The notes under the pieces are model-generated. The model ran no database searches and had not been told where the DNA came from. It saw nothing but the letters and a program-made list of their open reading frames with translations. The translations under genes were made by a program, and so were the position numbers. From a virus, in IMG/VR virus record IMGVR_UViG_3300032323_002407, positions 1 through 50,423 of that record: a stretch of 50,423 bases of DNA. One strand, 5' to 3'. Shown here piece after piece: positions 667-23,030 of this stretch (position 1 is the first letter of the stretch; the number at the start of each line of letters is the position of its first letter).

Positions 667-671
667 ATATT

Positions 672-5058: not shown

Positions 5059-5062
5059 TAAT

Positions 5063-5641
5063 ATGCAAGTAATCGATCAAACAGAACTTGTTCGTAAGTT
5101 TAACTTTCGCAGTGTAATCACTGAGCAAGATGATGCAGATGCCTGCAACATTATCAAGAACATCATTGCCGACGGCAATTACTTTACTAATAGTCCCAAG
5201 TTTCAAACCAAAGAAAATATCTTTGCCAGACCAGAACCCATATGGTTGAAATATCGCATGAGCTTTATGTTTAGCTTATTCATGTATCTGGGTCGTGAAG
5301 TAAAGGTTTCTGACATGATGGCCTGGAGTTTTATGACCAATCTCCAGGGTGCCGAAGATCGTGAAAAACTGTGGCACAATCATTGGCATCCAAAAAATCC
5401 CAATAGTAAAATGTTCAGCGGAATATATTATCTGCACATCCCCGATGATGTCAAGGATCGGGACTATTGCGGCACAGAGATAGCACCTAATGGTGCAGAG
5501 CAAGATGGCAAGTATTTCATCACTCCTACAACAGGTCATTGGATCATATATCCCAGCAATACATGGCACCGTCCAGGTATTGTGCAGAGCAACCAATATC
5601 GATTCGTATTGGCAGCAGACATAGAATGCTCCTATAGTTAA
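5063..5641 (+). CDS. 2OG-Fe(II) oxygenase-like protein
   Basis: The 192-residue protein has the layout of phage 2OG-Fe(II) dioxygenases. A WHNHWHPKN segment near residue 113 supplies candidate iron ligands, followed by the strand SGIYYLHIP, then a late WIIYPSNTWHRPG segment (distal His) and an R-x3-A strand. Such enzymes hydroxylate protein or small-molecule targets using 2-oxoglutarate and O2. The ATG starts four nt after tRNA-Gly and lacks a Shine-Dalgarno. The last 14 nt overlap tRNA-Thr(GGT), so the gene is woven into the tRNA array. Substrate unknown. Confidence 0.75.
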   Translation: MQVIDQTELVRKFNFRSVITEQDDADACNIIKNIIADGNYFTNSPKFQTKENIFARPEPIWLKYRMSFMFSLFMYLGREVKVSDMMAWSFMTNLQGAEDREKLWHNHWHPKNPNSKMFSGIYYLHIPDDVKDRDYCGTEIAPNGAEQDGKYFITPTTGHWIIYPSNTWHRPGIVQSNQYRFVLAADIECSYS

Positions 5642-8280: not shown

Positions 8281-8331
8281 GACGTAGTCCTATAGTAGCG
8301 CCAGCCCCAAGGCGCTTTACAAAAAGGGCAG

Positions 8332-8358
8332 AATAGCACCTCCGGGTGCTATTTTTTT
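8332..8358 (+). terminator. intrinsic terminator after the phosphoesterase
   Basis: The stem AATAGCACC/GGGTGCTATT with a TCC loop is followed by a run of seven T. It separates the sigma70-driven operon from the accessory island. Confidence 0.9.
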
Positions 8359-8400
8359 GACTGGAAAATCTAAAAATATTTTGTATGGTACTGGTTGTTC

Positions 8401-8407
8401 ATAAATA
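8401..8407 (+). promoter_or_regulatory. T4-late-type ATAAATA box, 5 nt before a start codon
   Basis: ATAAATA precedes ATG 8413 by only five nt, in the Shine-Dalgarno position, and no GA-rich ribosome binding site is present. A T4-type late start about 6 nt past the box would fall on the ATG and give a leaderless mRNA. Confidence 0.55.
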
Positions 8408-8412
8408 TCTTC

Positions 8413-8877
8413 ATGCAACCAGTGACCCATTTAAATTATCAAATTGACAGACTTAAATTATTAGCAGAATCTCAATCTGTAAAAAACGAAGCTGAGGTGT
8501 ATACTGATCCAAGATATCCCGGCTATGAAATTCCAGGGTATCTTATAAAGCACTATACCAGCGAATACACAACTAAAATAATGAATGATCTCGGAGTGCA
8601 AGGCAAGTCCAGATTTTATTGGCTGCATCCTTTTACTAAAATTCCAGAACATATAGACAACGGCACCCTATGCGGAGTAAATTTTGTGCTAACGGAAAAC
8701 GCCAGCCCTATTACTTTTGGAACCACAGACTATCATTATAAATCAATTATTGTTAATACTACTATTCCACACAGTGTTACTAACAACGAGCACGAACGTG
8801 TGTTGTTTAAAATCAGTATTTTTGACACTACATATGAACAGTTGGTGGAAAAACTACAACACTATCATTCATGCTAA
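8413..8877 (+). CDS. 2OG oxygenase-like (double-stranded beta-helix) protein
   Basis: A 154-residue protein with the likely iron-binding pair at IPEHIDNG (HxD, about residue 78) and a distal IPHSVTNNEHERVLFKIS segment, the H...R layout of aspartyl/asparaginyl hydroxylase-like folds. I start at ATG 8413; an in-frame TTG at 8395 lies within the ATAAATA box context and is less likely. It is first of five same-strand genes. It overlaps the next gene by seven nt. Substrate unknown. Confidence 0.65.
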   Translation: MQPVTHLNYQIDRLKLLAESQSVKNEAEVYTDPRYPGYEIPGYLIKHYTSEYTTKIMNDLGVQGKSRFYWLHPFTKIPEHIDNGTLCGVNFVLTENASPITFGTTDYHYKSIIVNTTIPHSVTNNEHERVLFKISIFDTTYEQLVEKLQHYHSC

Positions 8878-9584
8878 TAGACCGTGAAAAAATCATTCAG
8901 GAAACATTACAGGTATTCAAACACACTGAAAAATTCCGAAATATCACTGACTTCATTGATCAATTCCAATACTCGGAAATACACAGAAATTTTTTAACAG
9001 CCACTGATATCTTCATAGACTGCGATCAGCTCAGTAATGATATAGAGCGATATAACGACTATTTTCAACCGTGGGGAAACAAACACAACGACTTGCCCCG
9101 ATACGGTCTGGCGTTGGTTAATCAAGATGGCACGTTGAAAACTGATGATCCTATCAATGGGTCATTGCATGAATGGAATATCAAACATCCGGACAATGTA
9201 ATCATTGAAACTGATTGCAGAGAACCCACAGACGTGCTGTCAGCAGCTTCTTTGTTACCACTGAATATTTTTAACGGGCATTGGTGCAGATCAAATATAT
9301 TGAAATGGCACCGTGGAGCTAAATTCTATCCGCACATAGATACCTGTATACCTAGTCCCTGGATAAGATTGTGGGCTACTAATGATGCAGAAAAAATCAA
9401 TCTGAGATACATGGACGAGCAGGGAGTCATGCAATCTGTGCCAAACATCGAAAATGGTAGAGTGTATGTGATCGACACAGCTGTGGTACATGATGCAGAG
9501 TGCCACGACACCGTATACCAATTATTTTTAAGTGTTACTCCCCAGGCCATAAATATACTCAAGGAAAGACTGTGTATAACATAG
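8871..9584 (+). CDS. aspartyl/asparaginyl hydroxylase-like 2OG oxygenase
   Basis: The 237-residue protein contains GAKFYPHIDTCIPSPWIRLW (HxD metal motif) and later NIENGRVYVIDTAVVHDAEC with the distal His, as in beta-hydroxylase-type 2OG enzymes. The N-terminal 100 residues are less familiar and may recognise the substrate. It overlaps genes on both sides, so it is probably translationally coupled with the methyltransferase that follows. Confidence 0.7.
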   Translation: MLIDREKIIQETLQVFKHTEKFRNITDFIDQFQYSEIHRNFLTATDIFIDCDQLSNDIERYNDYFQPWGNKHNDLPRYGLALVNQDGTLKTDDPINGSLHEWNIKHPDNVIIETDCREPTDVLSAASLLPLNIFNGHWCRSNILKWHRGAKFYPHIDTCIPSPWIRLWATNDAEKINLRYMDEQGVMQSVPNIENGRVYVIDTAVVHDAECHDTVYQLFLSVTPQAINILKERLCIT

Positions 9585-10339
9585 ACAACAACATACCCGG
9601 GTGGCAGGACTATGTTCTCAACATAGACAGTGATCGTGGACCGTTAACAGTGAAGTGGAGTCAAGCTGACAAATTAGCGTTTTGGGCTAACATACAGGCT
9701 GGCGTTTATCTACAGAAAACAAACTCATTACAAACTTTTTATGAATTCTTCCCTAGATGGTATCAACTGTTCTGGGATCGAAGATTTGTACAAGGACTGT
9801 TTGATGTTGCAGATGATTCTGTGATTTTAGATATAGGATGCGGTATTGCGGTAATTGATCTGCTGTTAGCATCTTATCTTCCTCGCAGTAAATTCTATCT
9901 TCTCGATCGGCAGGGATACAACTTTACAACTGGCATCTACTACGACGACAACTATCCTGTGTATCACAATTGGGATCCTGTAATTGATGCTATATCTACA
10001 AGTGGGTTGGATCATAACAGATTTGTTTTTTTAGAACCTGAAAATGCTTGGCCTGAGCAGGTGGATGTAATTACTTCATATTTCTCTTACTGTTTTCATT
10101 ATCCAAAAGAAAAATACTGGGATAATATTTTAGCTTCGTTGAAAATCGGAGGAAAGCTGATATTAGATGTAAGGCAATTATCCGATAGAGATACAATAGG
10201 AGAGATCAGCGAAGTTATGAAATCCACACCCACCTGCCATTGGTTTGATAGTAAATTACCCGAACATGTTGATAACATGCCTGCTCCTATACCAGGCATG
10301 CCCATGGGAGGAAGATGTATGTGGACGAGGAACAAATAA
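9572..10339 (+). CDS. class I SAM-dependent methyltransferase
   Basis: The Rossmann motif I VILDIGCGIAVID lies at about residues 84-96, followed by an acidic strand end (FYLLDRQ) and a post-motif block GGKLILDVRQLSD typical of class I methyltransferases. I choose GTG 9572 with AAGGAA at 9561-9566; ATG 9500 would overlap the upstream gene by 85 nt and has no ribosome binding site. The product is about 255 residues. It sits between 2OG oxygenases, and its stop overlaps the next ATG (TAATG). Confidence 0.8.
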   Translation: MYNIDNNIPGWQDYVLNIDSDRGPLTVKWSQADKLAFWANIQAGVYLQKTNSLQTFYEFFPRWYQLFWDRRFVQGLFDVADDSVILDIGCGIAVIDLLLASYLPRSKFYLLDRQGYNFTTGIYYDDNYPVYHNWDPVIDAISTSGLDHNRFVFLEPENAWPEQVDVITSYFSYCFHYPKEKYWDNILASLKIGGKLILDVRQLSDRDTIGEISEVMKSTPTCHWFDSKLPEHVDNMPAPIPGMPMGGRCMWTRNK

Positions 10340-10974
10340 TGACAGAATTTAACCTGGGGGAATTTAAAGATTTATTTCCTTTGAAAATCTATGAAGCTGA
10401 GTATCCGGATTTTCATAAAATTAAACAAAAACTACTCGATGATCTAGAGCCTCATTTTGCTACGTTGTCTCCTGGAAATGAGTATATCGACTCCTCGGGA
10501 AATCCGTTGATATATCGAACATTGCCTAATTTAGAAAAAGATCCTAACTTTAAAGAACTTATAGAATTTGCAGAACATCACGGGAGGATCTATTGGAAGG
10601 AATGTAAGCTCACAAACCGAGTTGATCCTTACGTGTTGCACATGTGGTCTAACAAAATTCCGCCTGGGGGTTTCACTCCGGTTCATGTACACACGCCTAT
10701 ACCAATTGCAGCAGCATTTTATATTAATGCCAACAACGATATGGGAGTCTTAGAAATAGAGAATCCCATTGACACTATACAAAAATTAATGCCAAGAGAT
10801 AATTATTTTTTTCCACCCCAGGAACTACATAAAGTAAACGTATCAGACGGAAAACTGGTACTGTTTCCAGGATGGGTAAGACACTGTACACGATCAAATC
10901 TTACAACTGAAAATCGAGTGATTGTAAGTTTCGACATAGGAGCAAATATAACATATCATGCCAAAAACCATTGA
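10339..10974 (+). CDS. phage-type 2OG-Fe(II) oxygenase, paralogue 1
   Basis: The 211-residue protein follows the layout shared by four genes here: LFPLKIYEAEYP at the N-terminus, YVLHMWSNK-PPGGF, the metal segment HVHTPIPIAAAFYINA, a GVLEIENP strand, then LVLFPGWVRHCTRSN with the distal His and a late Arg. ATG 10339 has GAGGAA upstream and overlaps the methyltransferase stop (TAATG). Paralogues lie at 10958, 12897 and 15997. Such families are common in aquatic T4-like phages. Substrate unknown. Confidence 0.8.
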   Translation: MTEFNLGEFKDLFPLKIYEAEYPDFHKIKQKLLDDLEPHFATLSPGNEYIDSSGNPLIYRTLPNLEKDPNFKELIEFAEHHGRIYWKECKLTNRVDPYVLHMWSNKIPPGGFTPVHVHTPIPIAAAFYINANNDMGVLEIENPIDTIQKLMPRDNYFFPPQELHKVNVSDGKLVLFPGWVRHCTRSNLTTENRVIVSFDIGANITYHAKNH

Positions 10975-11614
10975 CATTTTTCCTCAGACCATTTACGAAG
11001 TTGAGTATCCGAATTTTGAAAAAATACAATCTGCGCTTACTACACATATCAATACAGAATATAAAAATCAACTAATAGAGGATTATTCTGCTCATGACCA
11101 TCCTATTCGGTTAGGGTCATTGACGAAAATTTTTGATAGCAACGATAATTATAAATCAGGAAAAGTCATTGAAGATCAAACGTTGATATCTCTCATGGAT
11201 TTTATCACAGAGCACGGCCGAGCATATTGGAAAATATTAAATCTATCAAGCCATCTGGACCCTTACATTTTACAGCTTTGGGTCAACTCTGTAGGAAAAG
11301 GCGGGTTTGTAGCAAGCCATAATCATAACCCTGTGCCTGTCTCTGGAGTGTTTTATATCAATGCAGAGCCTAAACAAGGAAATCTTTTTTTAGAAAATCC
11401 GTTAGACATACTGTTAGGAAGAAGTGCATTGGACGTAACTGCGAAAACACCTACAAGATTTAATTATGAGATAGAATCTGTAACTGGAAAATTAGTTTTA
11501 TTTCCTGGTTGGATGAAGCATTTTACAAGACCCAACACTACTGACGAGTCAAGAATAAGCATGGCTGTGAATTTCGGATGCCAGGGGCAGGTGTCATTCA
11601 CAGAATTTATTTAG
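10958..11614 (+). CDS. phage-type 2OG-Fe(II) oxygenase, paralogue 2
   Basis: The 218-residue paralogue of the preceding gene carries IFPQTIYEVEYP at the start, YILQLWVNS, the metal segment ASHNHNPVPVSGVFYINA and LVLFPGWMKHFTRPN. It is the last gene of the plus-strand block and its stop overlaps the opposing gene at 11611 by four nt. Adjacent, diverged copies point to tandem duplication with specialisation. Confidence 0.8.
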   Translation: MPKTIDIFPQTIYEVEYPNFEKIQSALTTHINTEYKNQLIEDYSAHDHPIRLGSLTKIFDSNDNYKSGKVIEDQTLISLMDFITEHGRAYWKILNLSSHLDPYILQLWVNSVGKGGFVASHNHNPVPVSGVFYINAEPKQGNLFLENPLDILLGRSALDVTAKTPTRFNYEIESVTGKLVLFPGWMKHFTRPNTTDESRISMAVNFGCQGQVSFTEFI

Positions 11615-11808
11615 AATCCCATGATCCTAGAATCTATTCTAAAGTTTCCTGTGTGATCTAGTACTTTAATATCATACCGAGATCCAGGAAATTTATACTG
11701 TTGAAAAATAACGTGTATCAGAGACTTAGGAACGGTAACAGTTTTGACCTTGTTGTCACCTTCATAGATATTAATTGTTAAAAAGAAACTGTTTAAATCG
11801 TTGTCCAT
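11611..11808 (-). CDS. small hypothetical protein
   Basis: A 65-residue product ends the minus-strand block. It starts MDNDLNSFFLTINIYEG and alternates short strands. It overlaps the upstream gene by 16 nt and the opposing oxygenase by four nt. No family is recognised. The tight packing supports it being real. Confidence 0.6.
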   Translation of the reverse strand: MDNDLNSFFLTINIYEGDNKVKTVTVPKSLIHVIFQQYKFPGSRYDIKVLDHTGNFRIDSRIMGF

Positions 11809-12584
11809 TTTTCTCTCGCATAAGTTAATAATTCTTCGATCTGTTCTTGATCAAGGCATCCGCAAAGATATGCGAATCCCAACGTTGCCCCGAACACCTC
11901 TAGATGGATGATCAGCATTTCATTTTTGCTTAGATTCCAATCTTCGTGATCAATATCCGACCAAAAATATCCCACCGTGTCTTTATATCGATTAGAAGCT
12001 TCACACAATCCTTTAGGCATACCACAACTGTGTGTTTCACTGATCTGCACAGCAGCTTGAATAAGATCTAAAGATTGATCAAAATATTCAGTGAAATAAT
12101 CTTTGACTGAATTTTTATATTCCGCATCAATACTGGCATTTGGAATTAACCCGTCGGTGAGTTCAGGCCAACTAAAAACATCATCATTGAAATTGTATCC
12201 GTAATCCCTGTTTGGTGATTGCAGTTCTACATATTCCCATGTTGTATTGTCTAATACAGTTTCTTCTCTAAAAATAGGAATATCGATTCTAAATTTGCCG
12301 CTGGTAATTCCCGCCTGATACAACTCGTTGTAACATACCCAATCTGTCTCTTGAAAATTCTTTTTGATTCTATAAATCATCCCATTTCTAAGATCGCAGT
12401 ATGACACTACACGATCACTCATGTAATAATACCCGTTGTCGTCACGCTCGATTCCGAAGTCGGCGATCGTAGGATTGTTTGGATGAACCAAGTAGTTTTT
12501 TTGAAATTCTTTGTTTTTCCAGTTGATGACTCTAACCTGCAGTTCTTTTTGCAAAAAGTTTCGTCTTAGTAGTTGTATGCTCAT
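11793..12584 (-). CDS. hypothetical protein
   Basis: A 263-residue soluble protein rich in Tyr, Asp, Asn and Trp. A conserved-looking core HSCGMPKGLCEASNR lies near residue 195, and a hydrophobic GATLGFAYLCGCL segment near 235 might be a buried helix. No catalytic motif is identified. It overlaps both neighbours by 4-16 nt in the operon with the oxygenase at 12897. Confidence 0.65.
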   Translation of the reverse strand: MSIQLLRRNFLQKELQVRVINWKNKEFQKNYLVHPNNPTIADFGIERDDNGYYYMSDRVVSYCDLRNGMIYRIKKNFQETDWVCYNELYQAGITSGKFRIDIPIFREETVLDNTTWEYVELQSPNRDYGYNFNDDVFSWPELTDGLIPNASIDAEYKNSVKDYFTEYFDQSLDLIQAAVQISETHSCGMPKGLCEASNRYKDTVGYFWSDIDHEDWNLSKNEMLIIHLEVFGATLGFAYLCGCLDQEQIEELLTYAREKWTTI

Positions 12585-12904
12585 GATATATCCTGGGGTT
12601 CTATAACGTAGTATTTATACTCATGTTTTGTCCTGGCACAGTATTCATTGATCAACAGCATTCTTTTATCCAATAGATCCTTGTTTTCTACAGCAAACTG
12701 ATAGAAAGTTTGGGCACTATCGAAGCATAATGCTTTATCGCATCTATAGTCGTCTCTGTAAACATTCTCATCTACACCCAAAAACCCTGATAATTTTTTT
12801 GCATTTTTGTGTAGTTCTTGAATGAGTTCGTATTTCATGTAGATATCGCCGAAGAATTCGAACTCAGTGTCGGGCCGAATAAATGAAGCTACTATTTTAA
12901 ACAT
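12581..12904 (-). CDS. hypothetical protein
   Basis: A 107-residue protein beginning MFKIVASFIRPDTEF; a second Met at residue 23 is a possible start. It is mainly helical by appearance and contains two cysteines. It overlaps the 2OG oxygenase upstream by eight nt and the next gene by ATGA. No family is recognised. Confidence 0.6.
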   Translation of the reverse strand: MFKIVASFIRPDTEFEFFGDIYMKYELIQELHKNAKKLSGFLGVDENVYRDDYRCDKALCFDSAQTFYQFAVENKDLLDKRMLLINEYCARTKHEYKYYVIEPQDIS

Positions 12905-13532
12905 TATGATCCCATTGTGCTGACCAATACTTGCCCTTGGAAGCTATGTTAAATGCTAAAATCAGTCTATCTTCGGCAGAGGTATTAGGCTTTACACTGT
13001 GTTTAATGTACCCAGGAAACATAACAAGATCCCCCGAGTTAACTGATATTTCTTCTCCGATAGGATATTTCACATTAGGTCCTATAGGCTGCGTCATTAA
13101 AATTGTATCCATGGGATTTTCTAAAAATAAATTGCCTTGGTCTGGACTTGCCTTTATGTACAGCACAGCAGTGAATGGCATGTTGCCGTGTAGATGAGAA
13201 TCCACGTATCCTCCCTGTGGAGTTTTATTAGCCCACATCTGATACACAAACGGAGTTAGTTCTTGATAATACCCGCATTGATCCCAGTACTCAATTGCAC
13301 ACTGTTCTACAAACGCTACAACATCTGCTGTGTCTTCTTTGAATCGTTGGTGCAGGTCCGGATATGTGTGATAAGAACATATTGTGCCCTGCTTCATAAA
13401 AACATTGTTCTTAGACTGTGTGTGGTCAAATAGTTCTTGTAATTTAGGAAACAAGGTATCTTCTATTTGCTTAAACTTGTCATAGAAATTTTTATAAACT
13501 ATTGTTGGAAATAGTTGCAAACTTTGCTTCAT
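12897..13532 (-). CDS. phage-type 2OG-Fe(II) oxygenase, paralogue 3
   Basis: The 211-residue protein shows the paralogue layout: LFPTIVYKNFYD, YQMWANKTPQGGYVDSH, the metal segment HLHGNMPFTAVLYIKA, GNLFLENP and DLVMFPGYIKHSVKPN with a late Arg. It lies in the minus block next to two cupin-like genes. Substrate unknown. Confidence 0.8.
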   Translation of the reverse strand: MKQSLQLFPTIVYKNFYDKFKQIEDTLFPKLQELFDHTQSKNNVFMKQGTICSYHTYPDLHQRFKEDTADVVAFVEQCAIEYWDQCGYYQELTPFVYQMWANKTPQGGYVDSHLHGNMPFTAVLYIKASPDQGNLFLENPMDTILMTQPIGPNVKYPIGEEISVNSGDLVMFPGYIKHSVKPNTSAEDRLILAFNIASKGKYWSAQWDHNV

Positions 13533-13534
13533 TG

Positions 13535-14026
13535 TTAGACTTTTATTCTAGTGGCATGTTCGGGTCCTATTGGGTCTCCGACATAATGAACACTTTGACT
13601 CGACATGGTTAGATGTTCTGGCCAGTATTGTGTTATAGCGATTAATCCGCCACGAGGACCAGTTTTAACAGTATGCTGATCACTGCCTGAGAAATCCCAA
13701 ACTGTACCGAACCCAACGTTCGTACCATCTTCATTTTTCATATCTGCATAAAAATAATCAGGAGTGTCTACTAATTTTTCTTTATTCTTGGTTCCGGTCA
13801 ATGTGCCGTTGAGATAGATGATTCGATATTCGATATCAGGATGCTCATGATTAGGAGTTTCCCAGTTAGGTGCAAGAAAGTAAGTTTCAACTTGATATCG
13901 TCCTTGCCGAAATGTTATTGCGCTGAGACTGTGATCTGTAACATAGATAGGATCTTCGTTTGGTGGCTTCATCGGGTATCCATTTTTTTGATACCATTCT
14001 GTAAACTCGTCTATATCACTCCACAT
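13535..14026 (-). CDS. cupin-like protein, tandem copy 2
   Basis: The 163-residue protein resembles its upstream neighbour along its length: both begin MW-x-EF-x-W-Y-x-NG-P and contain EDPxYVTD, a histidine cluster (PNHEHPDIEY) and a GG-rich end segment. The histidine-rich strand pair suggests a metal-binding cupin barrel. It overlaps copy 1 by 11 nt. Function unknown; it may act on the product of the neighbouring oxygenase or dehydrogenase. Confidence 0.6.
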   Translation of the reverse strand: MWSDIDEFTEWYQKNGYPMKPPNEDPIYVTDHSLSAITFRQGRYQVETYFLAPNWETPNHEHPDIEYRIIYLNGTLTGTKNKEKLVDTPDYFYADMKNEDGTNVGFGTVWDFSGSDQHTVKTGPRGGLIAITQYWPEHLTMSSQSVHYVGDPIGPEHATRIKV

Positions 14027-14522
14027 TTTTATTCTCCAAAGTTTTTATAATTTTACCATGAGCTGGGTCAACTGGCTCACCCTTCCAATTAATAGTAACT
14101 GAATCAGGTCTGACACCTTCTGGCCATTTTTCTAAACTTAAAAATGCGCCACCTTTGTCACCTGCTATCAGCGCATGAGTTTGATTGTCAGTGAGTTTTT
14201 TACTGCACATTCCAAATAATTTATTGGTACCGTTTTCAGCAGATTCTGTATAGTGTTCACTGTAGTCTAACAGTTTACCATTCTGGACAGTATGTACATT
14301 TCCTCCCCAGATCATTACTATATTCTCAACTCCCGGATGGCTGTGTTCGGGACTGCTGGTGTTAGGCCTAACTAGATATAACTCAGCTTGATATTGCCCT
14401 TCTCTAAACAACACATAGCTATAACTAATATCGGTTACATAGACCGGATCTTCAAACGGCGGCCGTACAGGAAACCCGTTATCCTTGTACCACTGCGCAA
14501 ATTCTTCTAATGTATTCCACAT
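14016..14522 (-). CDS. cupin-like protein, tandem copy 1
   Basis: The 168-residue protein carries the cupin-like PEHSHPGVENIVMIWGG segment and a later DNQTHALIAGDKGG. AAGGA precedes its ATG, and a minus-strand TAAATA box lies 15 nt upstream of the ATG. It is a diverged duplicate of the gene at 13535. Confidence 0.62.
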   Translation of the reverse strand: MWNTLEEFAQWYKDNGFPVRPPFEDPVYVTDISYSYVLFREGQYQAELYLVRPNTSSPEHSHPGVENIVMIWGGNVHTVQNGKLLDYSEHYTESAENGTNKLFGMCSKKLTDNQTHALIAGDKGGAFLSLEKWPEGVRPDSVTINWKGEPVDPAHGKIIKTLENKNVE

Positions 14523-14537
14523 ACTTGGTCCTTGTAA

Positions 14538-14543
14538 TATTTA
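14538..14543 (-). promoter_or_regulatory. TAAATA box before the cupin-like pair
   Basis: TAAATA on the minus strand lies 15 nt before ATG 14522, leaving room for the AAGGA ribosome binding site. It overlaps the end of the dehydrogenase gene and could be an internal late promoter. Confidence 0.45.
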
Positions 14544-15110
14544 TTTGTCACTGTGCTGTATGTCAATCCAGTCCTGAAATGGCACATCTAAAATCAACTC
14601 CTGAACATAGATTTGATTCCGTTGTTCTAATATATCCACTAACAGTTTTGCAATGTGACTCGGTTGAAGTTTCTTGGCTACGAATATCTGCGACATTTCA
14701 GTTTCGACTAATCCTAGAATCAAATTAACTATTTGCGGGCAGGCCTTGAATTTTCTCTGTTGAATAAAATGATTCTGTGCTGTTTTATCTTCGACATAGA
14801 GTTTCATAGAATCCGGAACAACAGGAGCAAAGATAGATTTACTGCTGACATTAACAATTACTTTATCAAGCCCCTCCCATTGGTCTACAAACATCTGTAA
14901 TAGTTGAAACTGCGAATCTGGGTAAAATGCATTATTAATAAAAACATCGCAGTCTGCCGCTTCTGATAGTATCCGTTGTCTGCATGACTCTTGCCCTATG
15001 TCAAAACCGTTCGTTAGAGAATACCCAATCACGCTGTGACTTCGTTGAACTAATTCATGAAAAATAGCTGCTCCTATTCCCCTGGTGTGCCCTGTAATTG
15101 CAACTTTCAT
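14541..15110 (-). CDS. short-chain dehydrogenase/reductase
   Basis: The 189-residue protein begins MKVAITGHTRGIGAA, the NAD(P)-binding TGxxxGIG motif at residues 6-13. It continues with an NNA segment at about 59-61, VSS at 88-90 and the catalytic Y105-x3-K109 (YVEDK). It is shorter than classical SDRs (about 250), lacking much of the C-terminal part. I start at 15110 rather than an upstream in-frame Met because the Rossmann strand begins there. It is first in the minus block with oxygenase and cupin-like genes. Substrate unknown. Confidence 0.82.
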   Translation of the reverse strand: MKVAITGHTRGIGAAIFHELVQRSHSVIGYSLTNGFDIGQESCRQRILSEAADCDVFINNAFYPDSQFQLLQMFVDQWEGLDKVIVNVSSKSIFAPVVPDSMKLYVEDKTAQNHFIQQRKFKACPQIVNLILGLVETEMSQIFVAKKLQPSHIAKLLVDILEQRNQIYVQELILDVPFQDWIDIQHSDK

Positions 15111-15114
15111 GATG

Positions 15115-15120
15115 TACTTA
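15115..15120 (-). promoter_or_regulatory. TAAGTA box variant 4 nt before the dehydrogenase start
   Basis: The minus-strand TAAGTA stands four nt from ATG 15110, mirroring the divergent ATAAATA box of the QueC-like gene. It may be a degenerate late-type box. A weak AGGA lies farther upstream. Confidence 0.35.
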
Positions 15121-15138
15121 TCCTGTAACCGGGCTATC

Positions 15139-15145
15139 ATAAATA
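15139..15145 (+). promoter_or_regulatory. ATAAATA box 4 nt before the QueC-like gene
   Basis: ATAAATA is separated from ATG 15150 by GATC only, with no Shine-Dalgarno. A T4-type late start would fall at the ATG, predicting a leaderless transcript. Confidence 0.55.
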
Positions 15146-15149
15146 GATC

Positions 15150-16004
15150 ATGAATCCCATTTACGAGATTAATCCCAATAAACAACAATTCATTATCGAG
15201 GAACACTTTCCTAAGTTAGAAAAAAACAAACGCATGGGGGTATTCCTAAGCGGGGGCATGGAAAGCACTCTGATCACGTTAATCGCTCAAGAGGTCTACG
15301 GAAAAGAAAATGTTTTAATTTTTTATTCAGATAATATATTTTCTGATAACGATCCAAAACGCAGCAGCTATATCACAGCCAATGTATTTAGAACTGCAGA
15401 ATTGTTAAATGTGACTCCAATTTATGTAGATTTCGATTATGATTTTCATATATTGAATAGGAAGCAGTCAATAGAAAACAAAATATCGACTCTAAGAGAA
15501 CAGTACTCGGTAGATTTTGTAATGTTCGGATTTACTAAATTATTTTTTGAAGTTGAAGTTTTTAAACAAGATGGGCTGACTGAGGAAATGGTCAAAGAAA
15601 TGGCGTTTGCCTATCCAGAAAAATATCAGTCAACCATTGAAGAATTTTATTTAGAGACTGATGAATACACATGGACACTGCTTGAAATTGATATACCGGC
15701 GGAAGTATATCCGTTATTAAGACATACCAGCGGATTCATTAGAAGTCCTTTCAACAATCTCAACAAATGCGAAGTAGTTGACCTATACAGTCAACTGGGA
15801 AAATTGGATATTTTATATCGCACCAGCTCATGCATCACTGACAGCCTTACCAGAGTGGGCAAACATTGTGGTCGTTGTTTTAATTGTCAACAGAGATGGG
15901 ATGCCTTTAAAATTTTAGGAACTGATATAAAAGATTTAACTGAATACGATTCTGATGAAATAATGCATCGTCGAGAAAAACTAGAGGCAGTGAGAAATGC
16001 TTAA
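15150..16004 (+). CDS. QueC-like ATP pyrophosphatase
   Basis: The 284-residue protein has an N-type ATP-pyrophosphatase loop FLSGGMES (S34-S39) where QueC and ExsB have SGGxDS, and a four-cysteine zinc site C228, C240, C243, C246 (HCGRCFNCQQRW) as at the QueC C-terminus. QueC converts carboxy-deazaguanine to preQ0. The D-to-E change in the loop and the long middle region show it is diverged, so it may adenylate another substrate. It heads a plus-strand block with 2OG and radical SAM genes; QueD is at 34362. Confidence 0.72.
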   Translation: MNPIYEINPNKQQFIIEEHFPKLEKNKRMGVFLSGGMESTLITLIAQEVYGKENVLIFYSDNIFSDNDPKRSSYITANVFRTAELLNVTPIYVDFDYDFHILNRKQSIENKISTLREQYSVDFVMFGFTKLFFEVEVFKQDGLTEEMVKEMAFAYPEKYQSTIEEFYLETDEYTWTLLEIDIPAEVYPLLRHTSGFIRSPFNNLNKCEVVDLYSQLGKLDILYRTSSCITDSLTRVGKHCGRCFNCQQRWDAFKILGTDIKDLTEYDSDEIMHRREKLEAVRNA

Positions 16005-16626
16005 AGATATTTTTCCAGTACAGATTTATGAAGTAGACTTTCCCGATTACGACAGTATCAAAGATAGTCTATTGGCCGACGTTTTGAAATTGTTTAACAC
16101 TAATCTTGATCTATATGCTAAACACAGATTGTTTAATCAATCATATAGCCTTGAGGGCACAGAAGAAGGCATGTACCGAGACCTACACAAGGTGTTGGAA
16201 TATCCAGAATTAATGGCATGGATACAAGAACACGTACAACGCTACTGGACTGCGTTAGAATACAGCAGATTCGTTACTCCTGAAATCATGCATATGTGGG
16301 CTAACCTAACTCCAACAGGTGGTAACATAATACAACACAATCACAGTCCGTTTGAAATAGCAGGTTCATTTTATGTTGATGCTGATCCAGGCAGAGGTTC
16401 GTTGGTGTTGGTAGATCCTAATGAGATCATCAGGGGACGGTTACCTTACTACGATTCGCATGAAAGCAAGCAGGGAAGATATTTCTTTGATCATGTTGTA
16501 GAACCCCGACCCGGGAAACTTGTGTTATTTCCAGGATGGTTGTACCACAAAACTCAAAAAAATCCCAGCGACATTCCTAGAGTTGTTCTTGGGTTGAATG
16601 CTGGCCTAATGTATAAGATTGTTTAA
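15997..16626 (+). CDS. phage-type 2OG-Fe(II) oxygenase, paralogue 4
   Basis: The 209-residue protein shows IFPVQIYEVDFPD, EIMHMWANLTPTGG, the metal segment QHNHSPFEIAGSFYVDA, GSLVLVDP and LVLFPGWLYHKTQKN with a late Arg. It overlaps the QueC-like gene by eight nt, so the two are co-expressed. Substrate unknown. Confidence 0.8.
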   Translation: MLKDIFPVQIYEVDFPDYDSIKDSLLADVLKLFNTNLDLYAKHRLFNQSYSLEGTEEGMYRDLHKVLEYPELMAWIQEHVQRYWTALEYSRFVTPEIMHMWANLTPTGGNIIQHNHSPFEIAGSFYVDADPGRGSLVLVDPNEIIRGRLPYYDSHESKQGRYFFDHVVEPRPGKLVLFPGWLYHKTQKNPSDIPRVVLGLNAGLMYKIV

Positions 16627-16627
16627 A

Positions 16628-17791
16628 ATGTACTTCATACACAACACTGTCAGCCTGTGCAATCATTGTTATAGACATATCCCAGCGATAGTCTATGAAA
16701 AAGATAATAGGATAATGATGGCCAAACAATGCTCTGTTCACGGAATACAGGACAGCGTAGTAGAAATCGACACTGACTTTTATTACGGGTTAGAACATCA
16801 TCGAGATATTTCTTGGTTCAATCAAATACTGTTCGAAGCCAGCGATAGATGTCAACTAAATTGTCCTCACTGTTATCATCTACCTGATAATAAAATTCAG
16901 GATCGGCCTATTCATGAAATTATAGAACAGCTTAAACAATTTCCCAAAGATAGTTCTCCTATGCTTGCAGGAGCCGAAGCTACACTGAGACCAGACTTTG
17001 TCGAACTTTGTCAAGAAATCAACAAATTAGAATTTTCAGAATTTCAACTGTTGTCCAACGGGCTACGATTTGCAAACAAAAAATGGTGCCGAGAAGTCTA
17101 CGATGCAGGACTAAAAAGCATGTGCTTGGGATTAAATCATCCCAGCTATCAGGGACAGAAGATTCATAACAAACAGCTGTCTGCGTTGAGAAATATGATA
17201 GATCAAGGGTATGCTATTGGATATGTTGGTTATACAATAGAGTCGTATGAAAATTTAGCTGACATTTTAAATGAAATAAAATCTATTCACCATCCTCAGA
17301 TAAATCACTATCGTATAAGATGTGGAAGTTTTATAGGAAGAAGCAGCGATCAACAGAGAAGTTATCTAAGCGAACTGGTTAAAAGAATACGAGTGTTAAC
17401 TGACGGGAATATACAATCTTATCAGTCTGACGATAATCCCTATCATATAATAGTATCATGGAACGGAATTTTATTAAGACTGATTCAATGGCCGGATGTT
17501 ACCAATATCGATATGGAAGAATTAGCTACCGGACCATGGTGTCAATTTTATGATGGCCCTGTAACAAATTTCGTACATCAAGTGATTACTAGAGATGCAT
17601 ATAAAAATATGAATCTTCCGCAACTTGACACAGCGCCGATCAAATATCAGTATAGGTCAATGAGCATTACACATCCACACTGGAAAGATCAGTGGCAGGG
17701 GAAAAAGCATTTTGAAACGTTTGACTGGTCTCTTGAACCCGATCAAACTCCTGTTAAAAAGAACTTGATTCCTATTAAAAATGAAAAATAA
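16628..17791 (+). CDS. radical SAM protein with N-terminal Cys/His site (Tes-like layout)
   Basis: The 387-residue protein has the radical SAM motif DRCQLNCPHC (C75, C79, C82). It is preceded by SLCNHCYRHIPA and KQCSVHG (C11, C14, C35, H38), the N-terminal layout known from the archaeal-type Tes/MoaA-like radical SAM group. A LAGAEATLRPDF segment stands in the GGEP position. I start at ATG 16628; an in-frame TTG at 16619 is less likely. It overlaps the next oxygenase by 11 nt. Chemistry inferred to be radical C-H activation; substrate unknown. Confidence 0.8.
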   Translation: MYFIHNTVSLCNHCYRHIPAIVYEKDNRIMMAKQCSVHGIQDSVVEIDTDFYYGLEHHRDISWFNQILFEASDRCQLNCPHCYHLPDNKIQDRPIHEIIEQLKQFPKDSSPMLAGAEATLRPDFVELCQEINKLEFSEFQLLSNGLRFANKKWCREVYDAGLKSMCLGLNHPSYQGQKIHNKQLSALRNMIDQGYAIGYVGYTIESYENLADILNEIKSIHHPQINHYRIRCGSFIGRSSDQQRSYLSELVKRIRVLTDGNIQSYQSDDNPYHIIVSWNGILLRLIQWPDVTNIDMEELATGPWCQFYDGPVTNFVHQVITRDAYKNMNLPQLDTAPIKYQYRSMSITHPHWKDQWQGKKHFETFDWSLEPDQTPVKKNLIPIKNEK

Positions 17792-18365
17792 TTTTATTGA
17801 AAAAATAGACTACAGTGTCGACTTAGATCGCATGATGCAAGATCTGCACTACGTGGAATCGATTACAGAGTGGCCTGAAAAACGTTTTACTAAGAATGGC
17901 CGAGACTACAGTGCTAATCAAATAGGACTGAATTCCAGACCAGGGGCCGAATATCCCTGGTACGATGCCAACGGCAGTTTATACAACAAACTAGAAAAAT
18001 CTTTTTTGGCCAGAGAGCATGAGTTCACCGAATGGAATCCCATAGGTGCATATACAAAGACAATAATTGATCAACTGTCAGAGAAGTTTAATATTAAATT
18101 TGGCAGGATAAGATATATGAAACTGCTGCCTAAAACTGGACTGAGCATACATCCAGACGCCGAACCACGATATCATCTAGCCCTGCAAACCAGCCCACGA
18201 GCTCTGTTTCTTGATTGCACCCAGGAAGGAGATGTGATGGCAAAAGCATATCATATACCTGCCGACGGATATTTTTATAAAGTCAACACTTTAAGAGAAC
18301 ACACTGTTTTTAATGGTGGATGGGATCCTAGAATACACTTGGTGCTATCAGATATAACATGTTAG
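17781..18365 (+). CDS. aspartyl/asparaginyl hydroxylase-like 2OG oxygenase
   Basis: The 194-residue protein carries LPKTGLSIHPDAEPRYHLAL with an HPD metal pair, then a distal NTLREHTVFNGG His and a terminal DPRIHLVLSDI Arg strand, the beta-hydroxylase arrangement. It overlaps both neighbours. It probably acts with the radical SAM protein upstream; no substrate is indicated. Confidence 0.72.
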   Translation: MKNNFIEKIDYSVDLDRMMQDLHYVESITEWPEKRFTKNGRDYSANQIGLNSRPGAEYPWYDANGSLYNKLEKSFLAREHEFTEWNPIGAYTKTIIDQLSEKFNIKFGRIRYMKLLPKTGLSIHPDAEPRYHLALQTSPRALFLDCTQEGDVMAKAYHIPADGYFYKVNTLREHTVFNGGWDPRIHLVLSDITC

Positions 18366-18937
18366 AACTTGAATTTCACAATCTTACCCGCAGCAACGAG
18401 CTTTGGCAAGAAATTTATGATGTAGCTAAAAACGATCAATCACATGCTCTTTGGGAGAACTATCAAGAAATAGACATAGAACAATATGAAACTATGATTG
18501 TAACCACATGCCGAGGAAAACCTGCAAGTTTTCAGGGCATATATAATCAAGGAAGATGGCCTAATAATGTTTCAAGATTTTGCAATCGGGCATACATTAA
18601 TCCGCATTTTCGTAATTTAGGCGCAGGTCTCGAGATAACTTGGCGCAATGTTAAATATACATTAGACCACTACGACAGTTGGAATAAAGATATATTGTTT
18701 ATTTCTCGAGGTGTTCAGTACGACAATGTTGAAACAAGCTTCAAAAAATTTGAGAAATTTTGCAAGTTTCTTATAGAAAAAACTGGGTACAAATTAGACT
18801 ATGACGACCGTTTATATCAGTGTTGCCCTAAATTTTGCAAAGACTGTTATCAATTTTGCGTATGGTACGACCCAAAAGATCTAAGAAAATCTACAGAAAT
18901 AGCACAAATTAGCATGCAGCAATGGAGCTGCTTGTAA
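18359..18937 (+). CDS. possible GNAT-like acyltransferase
   Basis: A 192-residue protein overlapping the oxygenase by seven nt. The stretch RFCNRAYINPHFRNLGAGLEI resembles the beta4/alpha3 region of GNAT enzymes (strand, then R-x2-G-x-G). The C-terminal third is rich in cysteine (CCPKFCKDCYQFC), which could bind a metal. The GNAT call rests on one motif. It ends the plus-strand block. Confidence 0.45.
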   Translation: MLELEFHNLTRSNELWQEIYDVAKNDQSHALWENYQEIDIEQYETMIVTTCRGKPASFQGIYNQGRWPNNVSRFCNRAYINPHFRNLGAGLEITWRNVKYTLDHYDSWNKDILFISRGVQYDNVETSFKKFEKFCKFLIEKTGYKLDYDDRLYQCCPKFCKDCYQFCVWYDPKDLRKSTEIAQISMQQWSCL

Positions 18938-18955
18938 TGAATACTGTTTTCTGAC

Positions 18956-18961: not shown

Positions 18962-18994
18962 ATACAGTTGGTATTGAATCCAGGAGTTAAAGAT

Positions 18995-20275
18995 ATGCCC
19001 TTACAGATCCGCAGAGGCACCGATGCAGAACGGTTAGCAATGACACAGCCGTTAGCTCAAGGTGAGCTACTGTTTGTTTCAACCCCAGGCGCTGAGAGAT
19101 TATTCATCGGTAACGGTGTGACTCTTGGTGGCGTCCAGATTACAGGGTACACAAACGAAGACGCACAAGATGCAGCCGCCCTGCTTTTCAGCAACGGCGT
19201 ACACAACGGAATAACTTTCACGTATAACGACGCAGCAGCCTCTTTAAATGCTGCGGTCAATTTAACAAATTATCAAGGCGTTATCCAAGCTAACGCTTTT
19301 AAAGGCTCGGTATTTGCTGACGATTCTTCATTATTAGTAGATGCAGTTAGTGGTAGATTATTAGGCCCACTTACTGGTAATGTCACTGGTAACGTTACTG
19401 GCAATACTGCCGGAACACATACTGGCCCTGTAGTAGGTAATGTAACTGGTAATGTCACTGGAAATTTAACTGGGTTTCATACAGGCGATGTCAAAGGCAG
19501 TGTATTCGGCGACGACAGTACAGTATTAGTTAACGGTGTTGAACTATCTATAAACTTAAACGGCACTGTAAAATCTAACATAATCCCAGGAACCACAGCG
19601 GTTTTTGATATCGGTAGTGCAGCTAACCAATTCGATGACGTATACGCTGTTAATCTTAAAAATGCCAGCGATCAGATCGTGCTCAGCACAGCTACTAAAA
19701 CCGCGACTCTGGCACAGATAAATTTAGAATCTTCTGGATTAATTACTGGCCCGGCGATGATTGCTACAGTGCCATCAATACTGTATGCCACAACCGGAGT
19801 GTCTGCCACAGACCCATGGCCCAATCTTTTAACTATTAACACAGCATCTGTAGCAACTAACAGCTTGGGGTTATCTAGAAGCCGAGGCACATTGGTCACA
19901 CCCGCTTCGGTGGTCAACGGCGATGAAATCGGATCGATATCCATAAACGGACACGATGGCACTGGCTTTATTGCCTCAGCAGAAATAGTATTTCAAGTCA
20001 ACAACACAGTATCTACAGGTGTTATACCGTCAAAGATGGATTTCAATGTAAGTAGTGCTGCAGGAGTTGTTGCAACTAAGATGTCAGTGAAAGCCACTGA
20101 CGTTGCATTCTCAGTACCGCCGATGCTTCCTGTTGTAGCTAATGACACTGCTCGCACTGCATTGGTGCCAACTCCAGCTACTGGCATGATGATTTTCATG
20201 ACATCGGGCACATCACCTGCAGCTACAAATAAGGTGCAGGTATACGACAGCACTGCTTGGGTTAATTTGCACTAA
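18995..20275 (+). CDS. tail-fibre-like structural protein
   Basis: The 426-residue protein begins MPLQIRRGTDAERLAM and continues to LLFVSTPGAERLFIGNG, a start module common to phage tail fibres and tropism proteins. A TGNVTGN-type repeat run fills residues about 122-160, flanked by two KGSVFxDDS motifs also found in the protein at 47371. CAGGAG (18981-18986) sets ATG 18995; the upstream TTG is rejected. It is the only structural gene inside the accessory island, and its 3' end overlaps the opposing radical SAM gene by 14 nt. Confidence 0.82.
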   Translation: MPLQIRRGTDAERLAMTQPLAQGELLFVSTPGAERLFIGNGVTLGGVQITGYTNEDAQDAAALLFSNGVHNGITFTYNDAAASLNAAVNLTNYQGVIQANAFKGSVFADDSSLLVDAVSGRLLGPLTGNVTGNVTGNTAGTHTGPVVGNVTGNVTGNLTGFHTGDVKGSVFGDDSTVLVNGVELSINLNGTVKSNIIPGTTAVFDIGSAANQFDDVYAVNLKNASDQIVLSTATKTATLAQINLESSGLITGPAMIATVPSILYATTGVSATDPWPNLLTINTASVATNSLGLSRSRGTLVTPASVVNGDEIGSISINGHDGTGFIASAEIVFQVNNTVSTGVIPSKMDFNVSSAAGVVATKMSVKATDVAFSVPPMLPVVANDTARTALVPTPATGMMIFMTSGTSPAATNKVQVYDSTAWVNLH

Positions 20276-21344
20276 AAATTAAGATATCTTTAACTACCGC
20301 AGGCATAACTTCTAACAGATTATGCCTGTTTTCACTTTTCGGTGTACATAATCCGCACCCGCATAATTTATTAGGGCACACAATCACAGGCATGTTGTTG
20401 TTAGTGAGCATAGATTTAAGATCAGTTAACACTGTTTGACTTTGACTAATTGTTCCTATCGCTCCGCGGGTACCATCTAACTTTGCCTGGCAGGTTTGAT
20501 GATGAAATATCGAATCAGTCTGTTGTTCGATATGTAGAAAGTACCAATTAACACTGCAATGCCATCCTTGAAACTCTCTGTAATTCACTGACTTGGTTTC
20601 TTGTTGTTGGTCCTTGGAACAGGTAGCAAACGTTCTCCCTCCGCAGCAAGGCCGATGTTGCGGTGATATATCCATGTTCCAATAATTTTTTAACCATTCT
20701 TTCTGTGTAGCTGTATATAGATGCGCTTGACTAAAAGCACTGTTAGGATCTTCTCCAATCAGCCTTGGAATAAACTTAATTTGATTTTCAGTTAACCAAG
20801 AACAAAAGTCTACACATTGTTCAAATAAGTTAGCATGAAACATGACATTGATTTTCAACGATATCGAGCTGTCATTAAATTGCAATATACGAGCTTTGAC
20901 CATTTGTATTAATTTGTCATCAGCTTCTGCATGATAACTCACAGTCACATAATCAAAATTATCAATCACCGATTGTGCTGTGCGAGACGACATTGCTCCG
21001 TTGGTAGTAAGATCTAATTTGAGATTAAATTTTTGTGTAAAATTATTTTTGTATTTTGATCTTAGATACTCTGCAAATTCAATAAATTTAGGATGTACTG
21101 TAGGCTCTCCACCGGTGAAGCTTATGTGAAAATCTTTATTGTTTCTGTACTCAGCTATCAACGAACTGTAGTCAAATACAAAATCAGCAGTGCTTTTAAG
21201 ATTCTCTATGGCAGCATGAGCACTGAAATTATCATGTCTGTGACTTGGGCAATAACTACAGTCATAGTTACAACGGCGTCCTACATCCCAAGTAATAACA
21301 AAAGGATCTGCATTGATTGGAATGATCGAATGAAAGGTTTTCAA
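20262..21344 (-). CDS. radical SAM protein with C-terminal cysteine cluster
   Basis: The 360-residue protein has C25-x3-C29-x2-C32 (RRCNYDCSYC), FTGGEPTVHP at about residue 75 and TTNG near 112, the radical SAM core. The C-terminal half holds many cysteines (PCCGG, WHCSV, CPNKLCGCGLC), suggesting an auxiliary Fe-S or SPASM-like domain. It is the last of six co-directional genes on the minus strand. Substrate unknown. Confidence 0.85.
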   Translation of the reverse strand: MKTFHSIIPINADPFVITWDVGRRCNYDCSYCPSHRHDNFSAHAAIENLKSTADFVFDYSSLIAEYRNNKDFHISFTGGEPTVHPKFIEFAEYLRSKYKNNFTQKFNLKLDLTTNGAMSSRTAQSVIDNFDYVTVSYHAEADDKLIQMVKARILQFNDSSISLKINVMFHANLFEQCVDFCSWLTENQIKFIPRLIGEDPNSAFSQAHLYTATQKEWLKNYWNMDISPQHRPCCGGRTFATCSKDQQQETKSVNYREFQGWHCSVNWYFLHIEQQTDSIFHHQTCQAKLDGTRGAIGTISQSQTVLTDLKSMLTNNNMPVIVCPNKLCGCGLCTPKSENRHNLLEVMPAVVKDILIFSAN

Positions 21345-22444
21345 TTTGATACTCTTTTAATAAATTGATCTTTTGGTTTTGAAAAATTATCAGTAGACTT
21401 ACCGCAAACTCTAGCACACGTATATAAAATTTTAGTGGTCCAGTATTCTTCCCAAACAGTTTGCCATTGTTCCCGGTCAATTATATCTTTTAAAGAATGT
21501 TTCGTGGCATCTAAATTATCAATGCCGCCTAGCGATGCAACAAGATCATGATATTGTTCTAGTGATCTGCTATAAAATTTACCTATCATTACTTCTAGAT
21601 CAGTACTAGGAGCAATACTGGACTGATAGTTGTAAGGGGCGCTTGCTAAAAAACAACAAGGAAATACATTCTTGTGAGCATCGATATAAATTTCTTTGGT
21701 TTTTAGTACATAACAATCAATCTTGCTATCGCTTAGAATTTTCTCATGATTCATTATTGTATTATTCTTTACAAACACAACCTTGTTGTCTGTTGGGGGT
21801 TCTAAATAATACAAGGTATCCCCATTGGCATCAACTACGTTATATTGTTTGCCTTCAATAAATCTAGTTGTGTTCTTAACAGCGAATCTTTGAAACCCCA
21901 ATTCTTTACTACGGCGTTCCGCTTCATCGACCTGGTGCTCGTTGTGCTTGAATTTAATGAATACCCATTCAGCTATTCCGCCTACGTTGATAAAAGTAGT
22001 AGCATTCCGTATAATATTTTCGTATTTGGTACCTATTCGATATAGATGATGAGTATCTTCTAGCCCGTCTAGTGCAAAAATAACAACATGTTTTTCTGGT
22101 AATGCATAACGTAGAGCTTGCCACCATCGTGAACTACGGGCACCCCCATTTGTGTGAATGCGTAAATCAATATGCGGAGCATGAGTCTTTATATGCTGAC
22201 ACATTGATATGAGGTCATCATTCATAATAGGATCACCAAAATTACCACAGAAATATATAATTTCTAACTGCTGATATACTTCGGGTGTAAACACTGTTAT
22301 AAATTCTTCATAGGTCCAATCAGCAAGTTTTAAATTTGGATTTTCTATGCCGCCATGGTATTTGCGAGGACACATAGGACATGATGCTTGGCATCTTGTG
22401 CTGATTTCTAAATGCACTGATTTTAACTCGTTAAATTTAAACAT
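21341..22444 (-). CDS. radical SAM/SPASM-like protein
   Basis: The 367-residue protein carries TRCQASCPMC (C18, C22, C25), a FCGNFGDPI segment in the GGEP position, HTNGG, and a C-terminal IDAHKNVFPCCFLA segment typical of SPASM domains that bind auxiliary clusters. SPASM proteins often modify peptides. It overlaps its neighbours by 4-8 nt. Confidence 0.85.
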   Translation of the reverse strand: MFKFNELKSVHLEISTRCQASCPMCPRKYHGGIENPNLKLADWTYEEFITVFTPEVYQQLEIIYFCGNFGDPIMNDDLISMCQHIKTHAPHIDLRIHTNGGARSSRWWQALRYALPEKHVVIFALDGLEDTHHLYRIGTKYENIIRNATTFINVGGIAEWVFIKFKHNEHQVDEAERRSKELGFQRFAVKNTTRFIEGKQYNVVDANGDTLYYLEPPTDNKVVFVKNNTIMNHEKILSDSKIDCYVLKTKEIYIDAHKNVFPCCFLASAPYNYQSSIAPSTDLEVMIGKFYSRSLEQYHDLVASLGGIDNLDATKHSLKDIIDREQWQTVWEEYWTTKILYTCARVCGKSTDNFSKPKDQFIKRVSN

Positions 22445-23030
22445 GTCCGATCACCATAAATCTTTTATACAATGGTAGTTCTAATTCTCCTGCCCATAAC
22501 ACTGTTCTAAGGTCGCATTGTTCTACAAACTCGTCTAAATTCTGAGCGGTGCGTACATGCTCTGGAATATCGTAATTGTTGCTCTGTAAAACAAGTAAAC
22601 TGTTATATGGGATGCCGCTCTTCCATAACTCGAATTGATCCTGTGTGATATGTTCACAACTGGTGTTAATGATTACGTCAGCATCGCTGCGGATAGCACA
22701 CATGTCTGCGGTAATTGCTCTGAACATACCTGCCATCTCTTCTTTCTTATTCATCATTATTGCAATAGGTTCACATGTTGGATCAATATCAACACTTCGA
22801 ATCTTCGTGACGTATATGTCACTTTGAAACAGCATACTGGCCAACACTCCAACCCACCCGCCATGAATATCTATACTAACAACTTTTTTTACATTCTTAC
22901 GTAGATTAGTTATCAGCCATTCTTTGCTGTTAAGTTGGCCACTCCAAAAGGCATCCATGGTACGCATGGGATCGGGACTTTGGCGAATTGCCTGCATCCA
23001 GTGATGTAGGTGTTCAGTATCAATTTGCAT
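22437..23030 (-). CDS. SAM methyltransferase-like Rossmann protein
   Basis: The 197-residue protein shows a Rossmann start VVSIDIHGGWVGVLASML, an acidic second strand SVDIDPTCEPIA and VIINTSCEHI in the motif IV position. The glycine loop is atypical (DIHGGWVG), so SAM binding is likely but not certain. It lies among radical SAM genes with overlapping ends, implying a shared pathway. Confidence 0.62.
   Translation of the reverse strand: MQIDTEHLHHWMQAIRQSPDPMRTMDAFWSGQLNSKEWLITNLRKNVKKVVSIDIHGGWVGVLASMLFQSDIYVTKIRSVDIDPTCEPIAIMMNKKEEMAGMFRAITADMCAIRSDADVIINTSCEHITQDQFELWKSGIPYNSLLVLQSNNYDIPEHVRTAQNLDEFVEQCDLRTVLWAGELELPLYKRFMVIGHV

What the first reader, a model, noticed from the sequence alone, without database searches (positions are those of the whole stretch)
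10339..16626. Four paralogous 2OG oxygenases spread over both strands
The genes at 10339, 10958, 12897 and 15997 share the same layout (LFPxxIY start, MWxN, HxH metal segment, FPGWxxH) but are clearly diverged and lie in three different transcription blocks. This suggests duplication followed by different substrates, rather than dosage.
Basis: seen in the sequence. Interest (0 to 1): 0.55.

Follow-up and report, generated by a model that had tools for sequence, protein, structure and literature searches.

The report
Phage oxygenase paralogues beside tail fibres
A bacterial virus carries four anciently duplicated, still-conserved copies of a little-studied iron-enzyme gene in a fast-changing gene cluster beside its tail-fibre genes, which suggests, but does not show, that the enzymes chemically decorate the parts that touch the host.

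Summary
The four genes are real: all pass the Pfam PF13759 cut-off and match phrog_81. A divergent fifth copy (5063-5641) was missed. All four keep H-x-H…H and the distal Arg; the usual carboxylate is missing, but family-wide (second His in 103 of 103 rows). Each copy forms a clade with orthologues from other virus contigs and the four group together (98/93), though AU tests do not reject alternatives (p 0.07-0.17). Five other contigs carry all four in the same strand blocks. So the duplications look old and viral. The 15997 type also occurs alone in 11 differently arranged contigs, always after two cupin genes and a Gly-rich gene, so it has also moved between phages. The cassette (oxygenases, cupins, radical SAM) flanks an Mtd_N-type fibre gene and diverges faster than its flanks in three of four comparisons. 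This fits published host recognition clusters and metaviromic islands; multi-copy PF13759 is also published. My preferred role, modifying host-contact proteins, is inference. A new variant of a known kind.

The parts
10339..10974 (+). ox1, PF13759 / phrog_81 oxygenase-like protein (an ATG at 10315 is also in frame)
10958..11614 (+). ox2, PF13759 / phrog_81, tandem with ox1
12897..13532 (-). ox3, PF13759 / TIGR02466; predicted fold matches 2RG4 and 3BVC, then SnoN and prolyl-hydroxylase-type folds
15997..16626 (+). ox4, PF13759 / TIGR02466; the most conserved copy (82-83% in six contigs)
5063..5641 (+). fifth, divergent PF13759 copy, outside the four-copy clade
13535..14026 (-). cupin-like protein B, next to ox3
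   Evidence: no Pfam hit; 36% to cupin A and homologous in alignment A4
14016..14522 (-). cupin-like protein A; predicted cupin fold; homologue precedes ox4 in 11 other contigs
14541..15206 (-). short-chain dehydrogenase-like (weak, below Pfam cut-off); next to cupin A in six related contigs
8395..8877 (+). Asp/Asn-hydroxylase-like (PF05118, below cut-off)
   Evidence: conserved in cassette
8871..9584 (+). conserved protein with a visible H-x-D...H pattern, no family hit
9584..10339 (+). methyltransferase-like (weak; the ORF list starts it at 9500)
15150..16004 (+). QueC-like ATP pyrophosphatase; lies beside ox4 here
16619..17791 (+). radical SAM with N-terminal zinc ribbon (PF23545 + PF04055)
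17781..18365 (+). Asp/Asn beta-hydroxylase-like (PF05118 above cut-off)
18968..20275 (+). fibre-like protein, Mtd_N N-terminal domain (21.1 bits, below cut-off 26.3)
   Evidence: orthologues
20262..26448 (-). block with five radical SAM genes and one methyltransferase-like gene
   Evidence: Pfam on 20262 and 25432; NCBIfam on 24054, 21341, 23020; 22437 no hit, called methyltransferase-like by eye
39830..47371 (+). 2513-aa baseplate/tail-fibre protein (T4_gp9_10_N, phrog_9851), places the contig among T4-like phages

Best explanation
Shown: ox1-ox4 are members of PF13759 that keep all three family histidines and the distal arginine, have orthologues in the same strand blocks in five related virus contigs, and lie in a cassette of oxygenases, cupins and radical SAM enzymes around a fibre-like gene. 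Favoured by the data: they arose by old duplications inside a phage lineage, and ox4 also moved between phage types. Inferred: they are Fe-dependent oxygenases whose four copies act on different sites or substrates, and the cassette modifies phage host-contact proteins (fibre or adhesin) after translation, so that it varies together with host recognition. The exact substrate and reaction are unknown.
For: Family. Ligands. One clade 98/93, each copy its own clade (97-100 bootstrap). Of the five related contigs that hold all four copies, 5 of 5 keep the blocks AspH2/8871/MT/ox1/ox2 and ox3/cupB/cupA/SDR; the third block reads ox4/radical SAM/AspH as in the window in 2 of 5 and radical SAM/ox4/AspH in 3 of 5. 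Purifying selection on ox1 and ox3. Fibre link: a fibre homologue next to the cassette in G001, G002, G004, G005, G006 and L058; in 11 of 11 other contigs the order is Gly-rich protein, small protein (9 of 11), cupin, cupin, one further gene (4 of 11), ox4, with an S74-motif fibre upstream in 9 of 11 (S74 and collagen repeats confirmed by Pfam for L072 only). Cassette less conserved than flanks: median 50 v 88% (G005), 53 v 86% (G006), 43 v 95% (G014). Fold neighbours include protein hydroxylases such as P. putida P4H and PHD2. Literature: Fe(II) oxygenases listed in metaviromic islands under host recognition (PMC3909814, one section read); radical SAM cassettes in the host recognition cluster (PMC7029224, passages).
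Against: No substrate, activity or virion proteome. AU tests do not reject trees that break the four-copy clade. ox3 scores as well against outsider L084 (124 bits) as against its paralogues (105-129). The divergence contrast is absent in G004 (p 0.23). Flanking a fibre gene is association only, and the window's fibre does not look Gly-rich or collagen-like (by eye). The carboxylate ligand is absent, and the same Asp-to-His change abolished activity in human P4H (PMC2767507, passages). The best characterised fold neighbour is SnoN, a small-molecule epimerase.
Confidence: 0.4

Rival explanations
1. The cassette makes or tailors a small molecule, peptide or surface glycan (radical SAM + oxygenases + cupins + SDR + methyltransferase), not the phage's own fibre.
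For: The enzyme mix resembles natural-product or sugar-tailoring sets (recall); radical SAM hits are mostly to peptide maturases or cofactor enzymes, at low scores; cupin fold neighbours include sugar isomerases, KdgF, CapF and BacB; SnoN is a fold neighbour of ox3. A glycosyltransferase and KDO-like genes (by eye) lie downstream.
Against: No precursor-peptide gene is obvious in the tight cassette (genes mostly overlap; short ORFs were not tested systematically). Most radical SAM scores are far below family cut-offs, except N_Twi_rSAM for 24054 (380 v 170).
Confidence: 0.3
2. Each copy was acquired separately from other phages rather than duplicated.
For: ox4 occurs without ox1-ox3 in another setting; the L058 and L059 records hold two family members each, ox1 and ox3, although the neighbours of ox4 are there; AU tests do not reject broken clades.
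Against: Four copies form one clade 98/93 to the exclusion of 29 other family members; each of ox1, ox2 and ox4 scores higher against the other three clades than against any outsider in the set.
Confidence: 0.2
3. Host metabolism role: the enzymes draw on 2-oxoglutarate to adjust the nitrogen or energy state of the host, as proposed for cyanophages.
For: Proposed by Sullivan et al. 2010 (PMC3037559, passages).
Against: Does not explain four diverged, conserved copies beside fibre, cupin and radical SAM genes; the lack of a carboxylate leaves 2OG chemistry itself untested.
Confidence: 0.1
4. Nucleic-acid repair or modification (AlkB-like).
For: AlkB structures are among the fold neighbours (Z 14.6-14.7); DNA repair was suggested for cyanophage homologues (PMC3037559); a QueC-like gene lies beside ox4.
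Against: AlkB ranks below 2RG4/3BVC, SnoN and prolyl hydroxylases, though by little; the QueC-like gene is missing beside ox4 in the five related contigs.
Confidence: 0.08

Closest known systems
PF13759 (2OG-FeII_Oxy_5) / TIGR02466 / phrog_81
   Same: Profile scores above cut-off, same motifs, H-x-H...H and distal Arg; solved members 2RG4 and 3BVC (uncharacterised) share the fold (Z 21.8 and 21.5)
   Different: A closely related set of four kept together in one cassette with two cupins and radical SAM genes
Multi-copy 2OG oxygenases of T4-like cyanophages (S-SCSM1: 24 genes, 10 with PF13759; S-CREM1: 10 genes)
   Same: Several low-identity copies per genome (PMC9602691 and PMC9964418, passages)
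   Different: The cyanophage sequences in the tree fall outside the window's four-copy clade; S-SCSM1 and S-CREM1 themselves were not in the tree
Host recognition cluster of pelagimyophages / metaviromic islands
   Same: Fast-changing region with fibre genes, radical SAM cassettes and Fe(II) oxygenases
   Different: Here the oxygenase-cupin-radical SAM content is large and its block order is conserved; position between VrlC and gp14 not tested
Prolyl 4-hydroxylases (P. putida P4H, PHD2, Chlorella virus vCPH)
   Same: Related double-stranded beta-helix fold (Z about 14-16); His...His and distal basic residue in a similar pattern (recall for P4H)
   Different: Second triad residue is His, not Asp; structural identity 12-17%

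Membership tests
PF13759 / TIGR02466 | Profile score above the curated cut-off | tested here: met
   PF13759: 4 of 4 plus 5063 marginally; TIGR02466 run on ox3 and ox4 only, both above 62.5
PF13759 / TIGR02466 | Conserved H-x-H...H and distal Arg | tested here: met
   All four copies; in 103 rows: first His 102, second His 103, third His 101 of 101 with a letter, Arg 93 and Lys 5
Canonical 2OG-Fe(II) dioxygenase | 2-His-1-carboxylate triad | tested here: not met
   Second position is His in 103 of 103; no column with D/E in 70% or more of rows. By sequence alignment only; metal ligands not seen in a structure
Canonical 2OG-Fe(II) dioxygenase | 2OG- and Fe-dependent oxygenase activity | not testable with these tools
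   No biochemistry of the family seen in the listings
Prolyl 4-hydroxylase | H-x-D...H triad | tested here: not met
   H-x-H in all copies; D-to-H inactive in human P4H
Host recognition cluster / metaviromic island | Fibre genes inside the region | tested here: met
   Mtd_N-type fibre (below cut-off) next to the cassette, with homologues in related contigs
Host recognition cluster / metaviromic island | More divergent than flanking genome | tested here: inconclusive
   Yes for G005, G006, G014; no for G004; metagenome recruitment not run
Host recognition cluster | Lies between VrlC and gp14 | not tested
   Those genes were not looked for

The most novel reading that the evidence does not exclude
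The cassette is a dedicated phage system that matures its own receptor-binding proteins by several successive oxidative modifications, using a PF13759 enzyme class with a three-histidine iron centre that differs from canonical 2OG oxygenases; duplication of the oxygenase widens the set of modified sites and so tunes host recognition.
Probability: 0.15. Interest if true: 0.75.

Novelty: new variant of a known kind. Interest (0 to 1): 0.42.

Why it matters
Fe(II) oxygenases are frequent, unexplained genes in aquatic phages and are usually called auxiliary metabolic genes. A conserved, fibre-linked set of duplicates with cupin partners gives a concrete and testable alternative: modification of host-contact proteins. 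The family-wide absence of the carboxylate ligand also questions the automatic label 2OG oxygenase.

Tried and rejected
Close relatives: megablast of 8300-26500 against 50,697 phage records gave no match; tblastn of cupin A and of the zinc-ribbon radical SAM gave none there either. A viral scan with ox1 alone gave no relative, although orthologues were reached through the other copies. Bacterial relatives (5 loci) are distant; the four neighbourhoods viewed gave no functional clue. Tryptophan halogenase as a partner: absent from the window, present in another multi-copy contig. Collagen-like substrate: GXY runs were flagged in two of the 11 contigs, so not general. Recent duplication or dosage: rejected by 26-31% identity and old clades. 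dS was saturated in 15 of 19 pairs, so there is no dN/dS for ox2 or ox4. Fold lists show neighbours only; families not listed are not excluded.

Row choices: the tree set took 118 of 143 profile hits (at least 30 bits and 130 aa), dropped 16 near-identical ones and added 5063 (103 rows). One search used 59 of those, hand-picked: all of ox1-ox3, 9 of 14 ox4 rows, 29 outsiders; one named row (L077) was absent. The search that supplied the rows used the four copies themselves, so intermediates may be under-sampled. The AU groups were named after the tree was seen.
Full report
OBSERVATION. The four genes exist where stated, pass the PF13759 cut-off and match phrog_81. A search of the whole record finds five family members; the fifth is 5063-5641. 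Within the alignment of four, invariant residues include F8, P9, W100, N102, H113, H115, H178, N183 and R189 in ox3 numbering. The names ox1 (10339), ox2 (10958), ox3 (12897) and ox4 (15997) are mine.

LIGANDS. In 103 family rows the second His of H-x-H is present in 103, the first in 102, the distal His in 101 of the 101 rows that reach it, and the distal Arg is Arg in 93 and Lys in 5. No column is Asp/Glu in 70% or more of rows. So the family has a three-histidine pattern where canonical enzymes have H-x-D/E...H (canonical motif: PMC2767507, passages, and recall). In human P4H the equivalent D-to-H variant had no detectable activity. This is not a defect of one copy: it is shared by the whole family, including solved members 2RG4 and 3BVC, whose aligned segments show H-I-H. 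The predicted ox3 model (mean pLDDT 89.4) matches these best (Z 21.8 and 21.5), then SnoN (17.1) and prolyl hydroxylases (about 14-16). Metal geometry was not examined.

ORIGIN. Each copy has orthologues elsewhere. Five other contigs hold all four in the same three strand blocks (G001-G005); the third block has ox4 and the radical SAM gene swapped in G002, G003 and G005. In a careful tree of 59 rows ox1, ox2, ox3 and ox4 are each one clade and together one clade (98/93), against 29 other family members from cyanophages, pelagiphages, virus contigs and bacteria. Against this, three AU tests of broken clades were not rejected (p 0.087, 0.172, 0.071), and ox3 is about as close to L084 as to its paralogues. 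The fifth copy is outside. Whole-record counts give two copies in each of the L058 and L059 records; there ox1 and ox3 are present while ox2 and ox4 are missing although their neighbours are there (records may be fragments). ox4 occurs in another setting in 11 contigs. I therefore read the history as old duplication plus later transfer or loss.

SELECTION. Of 19 orthologue pairs, dS was measurable in four, giving dN/dS of about 0.12 and 0.08 (ox3), 0.14 and 0.09 (ox1); the rest were saturated. So ox1 and ox3 are clearly under purifying selection; for ox2 and ox4 intact frames and conserved ligands point the same way but no ratio was obtained.

NEIGHBOURHOOD. The cassette contains weak or clear members of several enzyme families: Asp/Asn hydroxylase-like genes, methyltransferase-like genes, two cupins, an SDR-like gene, a QueC-like gene and radical SAM genes. 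A fibre-like gene with an Mtd_N domain (below cut-off) follows, and a 2513-aa baseplate/fibre gene lies downstream. In the 11 other contigs, two cupins precede ox4 in all, a Gly-rich ORF precedes those in all, and an ORF with an S74-like motif lies upstream in 9; the motif scan was a simple pattern, confirmed by Pfam only for L072. These contigs are related to each other, so they are not 11 independent cases. Cassette genes are less similar to their orthologues than flanking genes for G005, G006 and G014 but not G004.

MECHANISM. Shown: family, ligand residues, order, neighbours. Inferred: iron oxygenase chemistry; that copies have different targets; that targets are host-contact proteins. The main rival is tailoring of a small molecule, peptide or glycan.

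LITERATURE. S-SCSM1 carries 24 2OG-superfamily genes, 10 with pfam13759, at low identity (PMC9602691, abstract and passages); S-CREM1 carries ten 2OG genes (PMC9964418, passages). Sullivan et al. proposed a 2OG/nitrogen role (PMC3037559, passages). Mizuno et al. list Fe(II)-dependent oxygenases eight times in metaviromic islands, under host recognition (PMC3909814, one section read; authors' reason for that label not given in the section). PMC7029224 (passages) describes a host recognition cluster with radical SAM cassettes. Searches for 2OG-FeII_Oxy_5 (3 papers) and TIGR02466 (1 paper) showed no biochemical study of the family in their listings. A search for oxygenase with tail fiber, phage, glycine-rich and adhesin found none.

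VERDICT. The phenomenon is known in kind; the conserved four-copy, cupin-linked, fibre-flanking cassette and the family-wide three-His site are the parts worth following.

Noticed in passing
L060:9604-14832, L064:9613-14809, L079:2899-11690, L101:1777-3390: Other virus contigs give 7-9 PF13759 matches each and carry tryptophan-halogenase-like genes (Pfam-confirmed for L060:9604-11076 only, E 1.8e-79; the others by sequence start). A weak DUF6065-like protein was found beside them in L101.
   Followed up: partly
L072:812-5968: A 1410-aa fibre with collagen repeats and an S74 chaperone domain, followed by a 29% Gly protein with a weak host-specificity fibre hit, directly upstream of the cupin-cupin-oxygenase unit.
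   Followed up: partly
window 264-5701: Twenty tRNA genes, with the divergent fifth oxygenase between the last two and overlapping the start of the last by 14 bases.
   Followed up: no
window 33655-39480: QueD-like, KdsA-like, glycosyltransferase, UvdE-like and IscU/IscA-like genes (mostly by eye; glycosyltransferase by phrog_1962).
   Followed up: no
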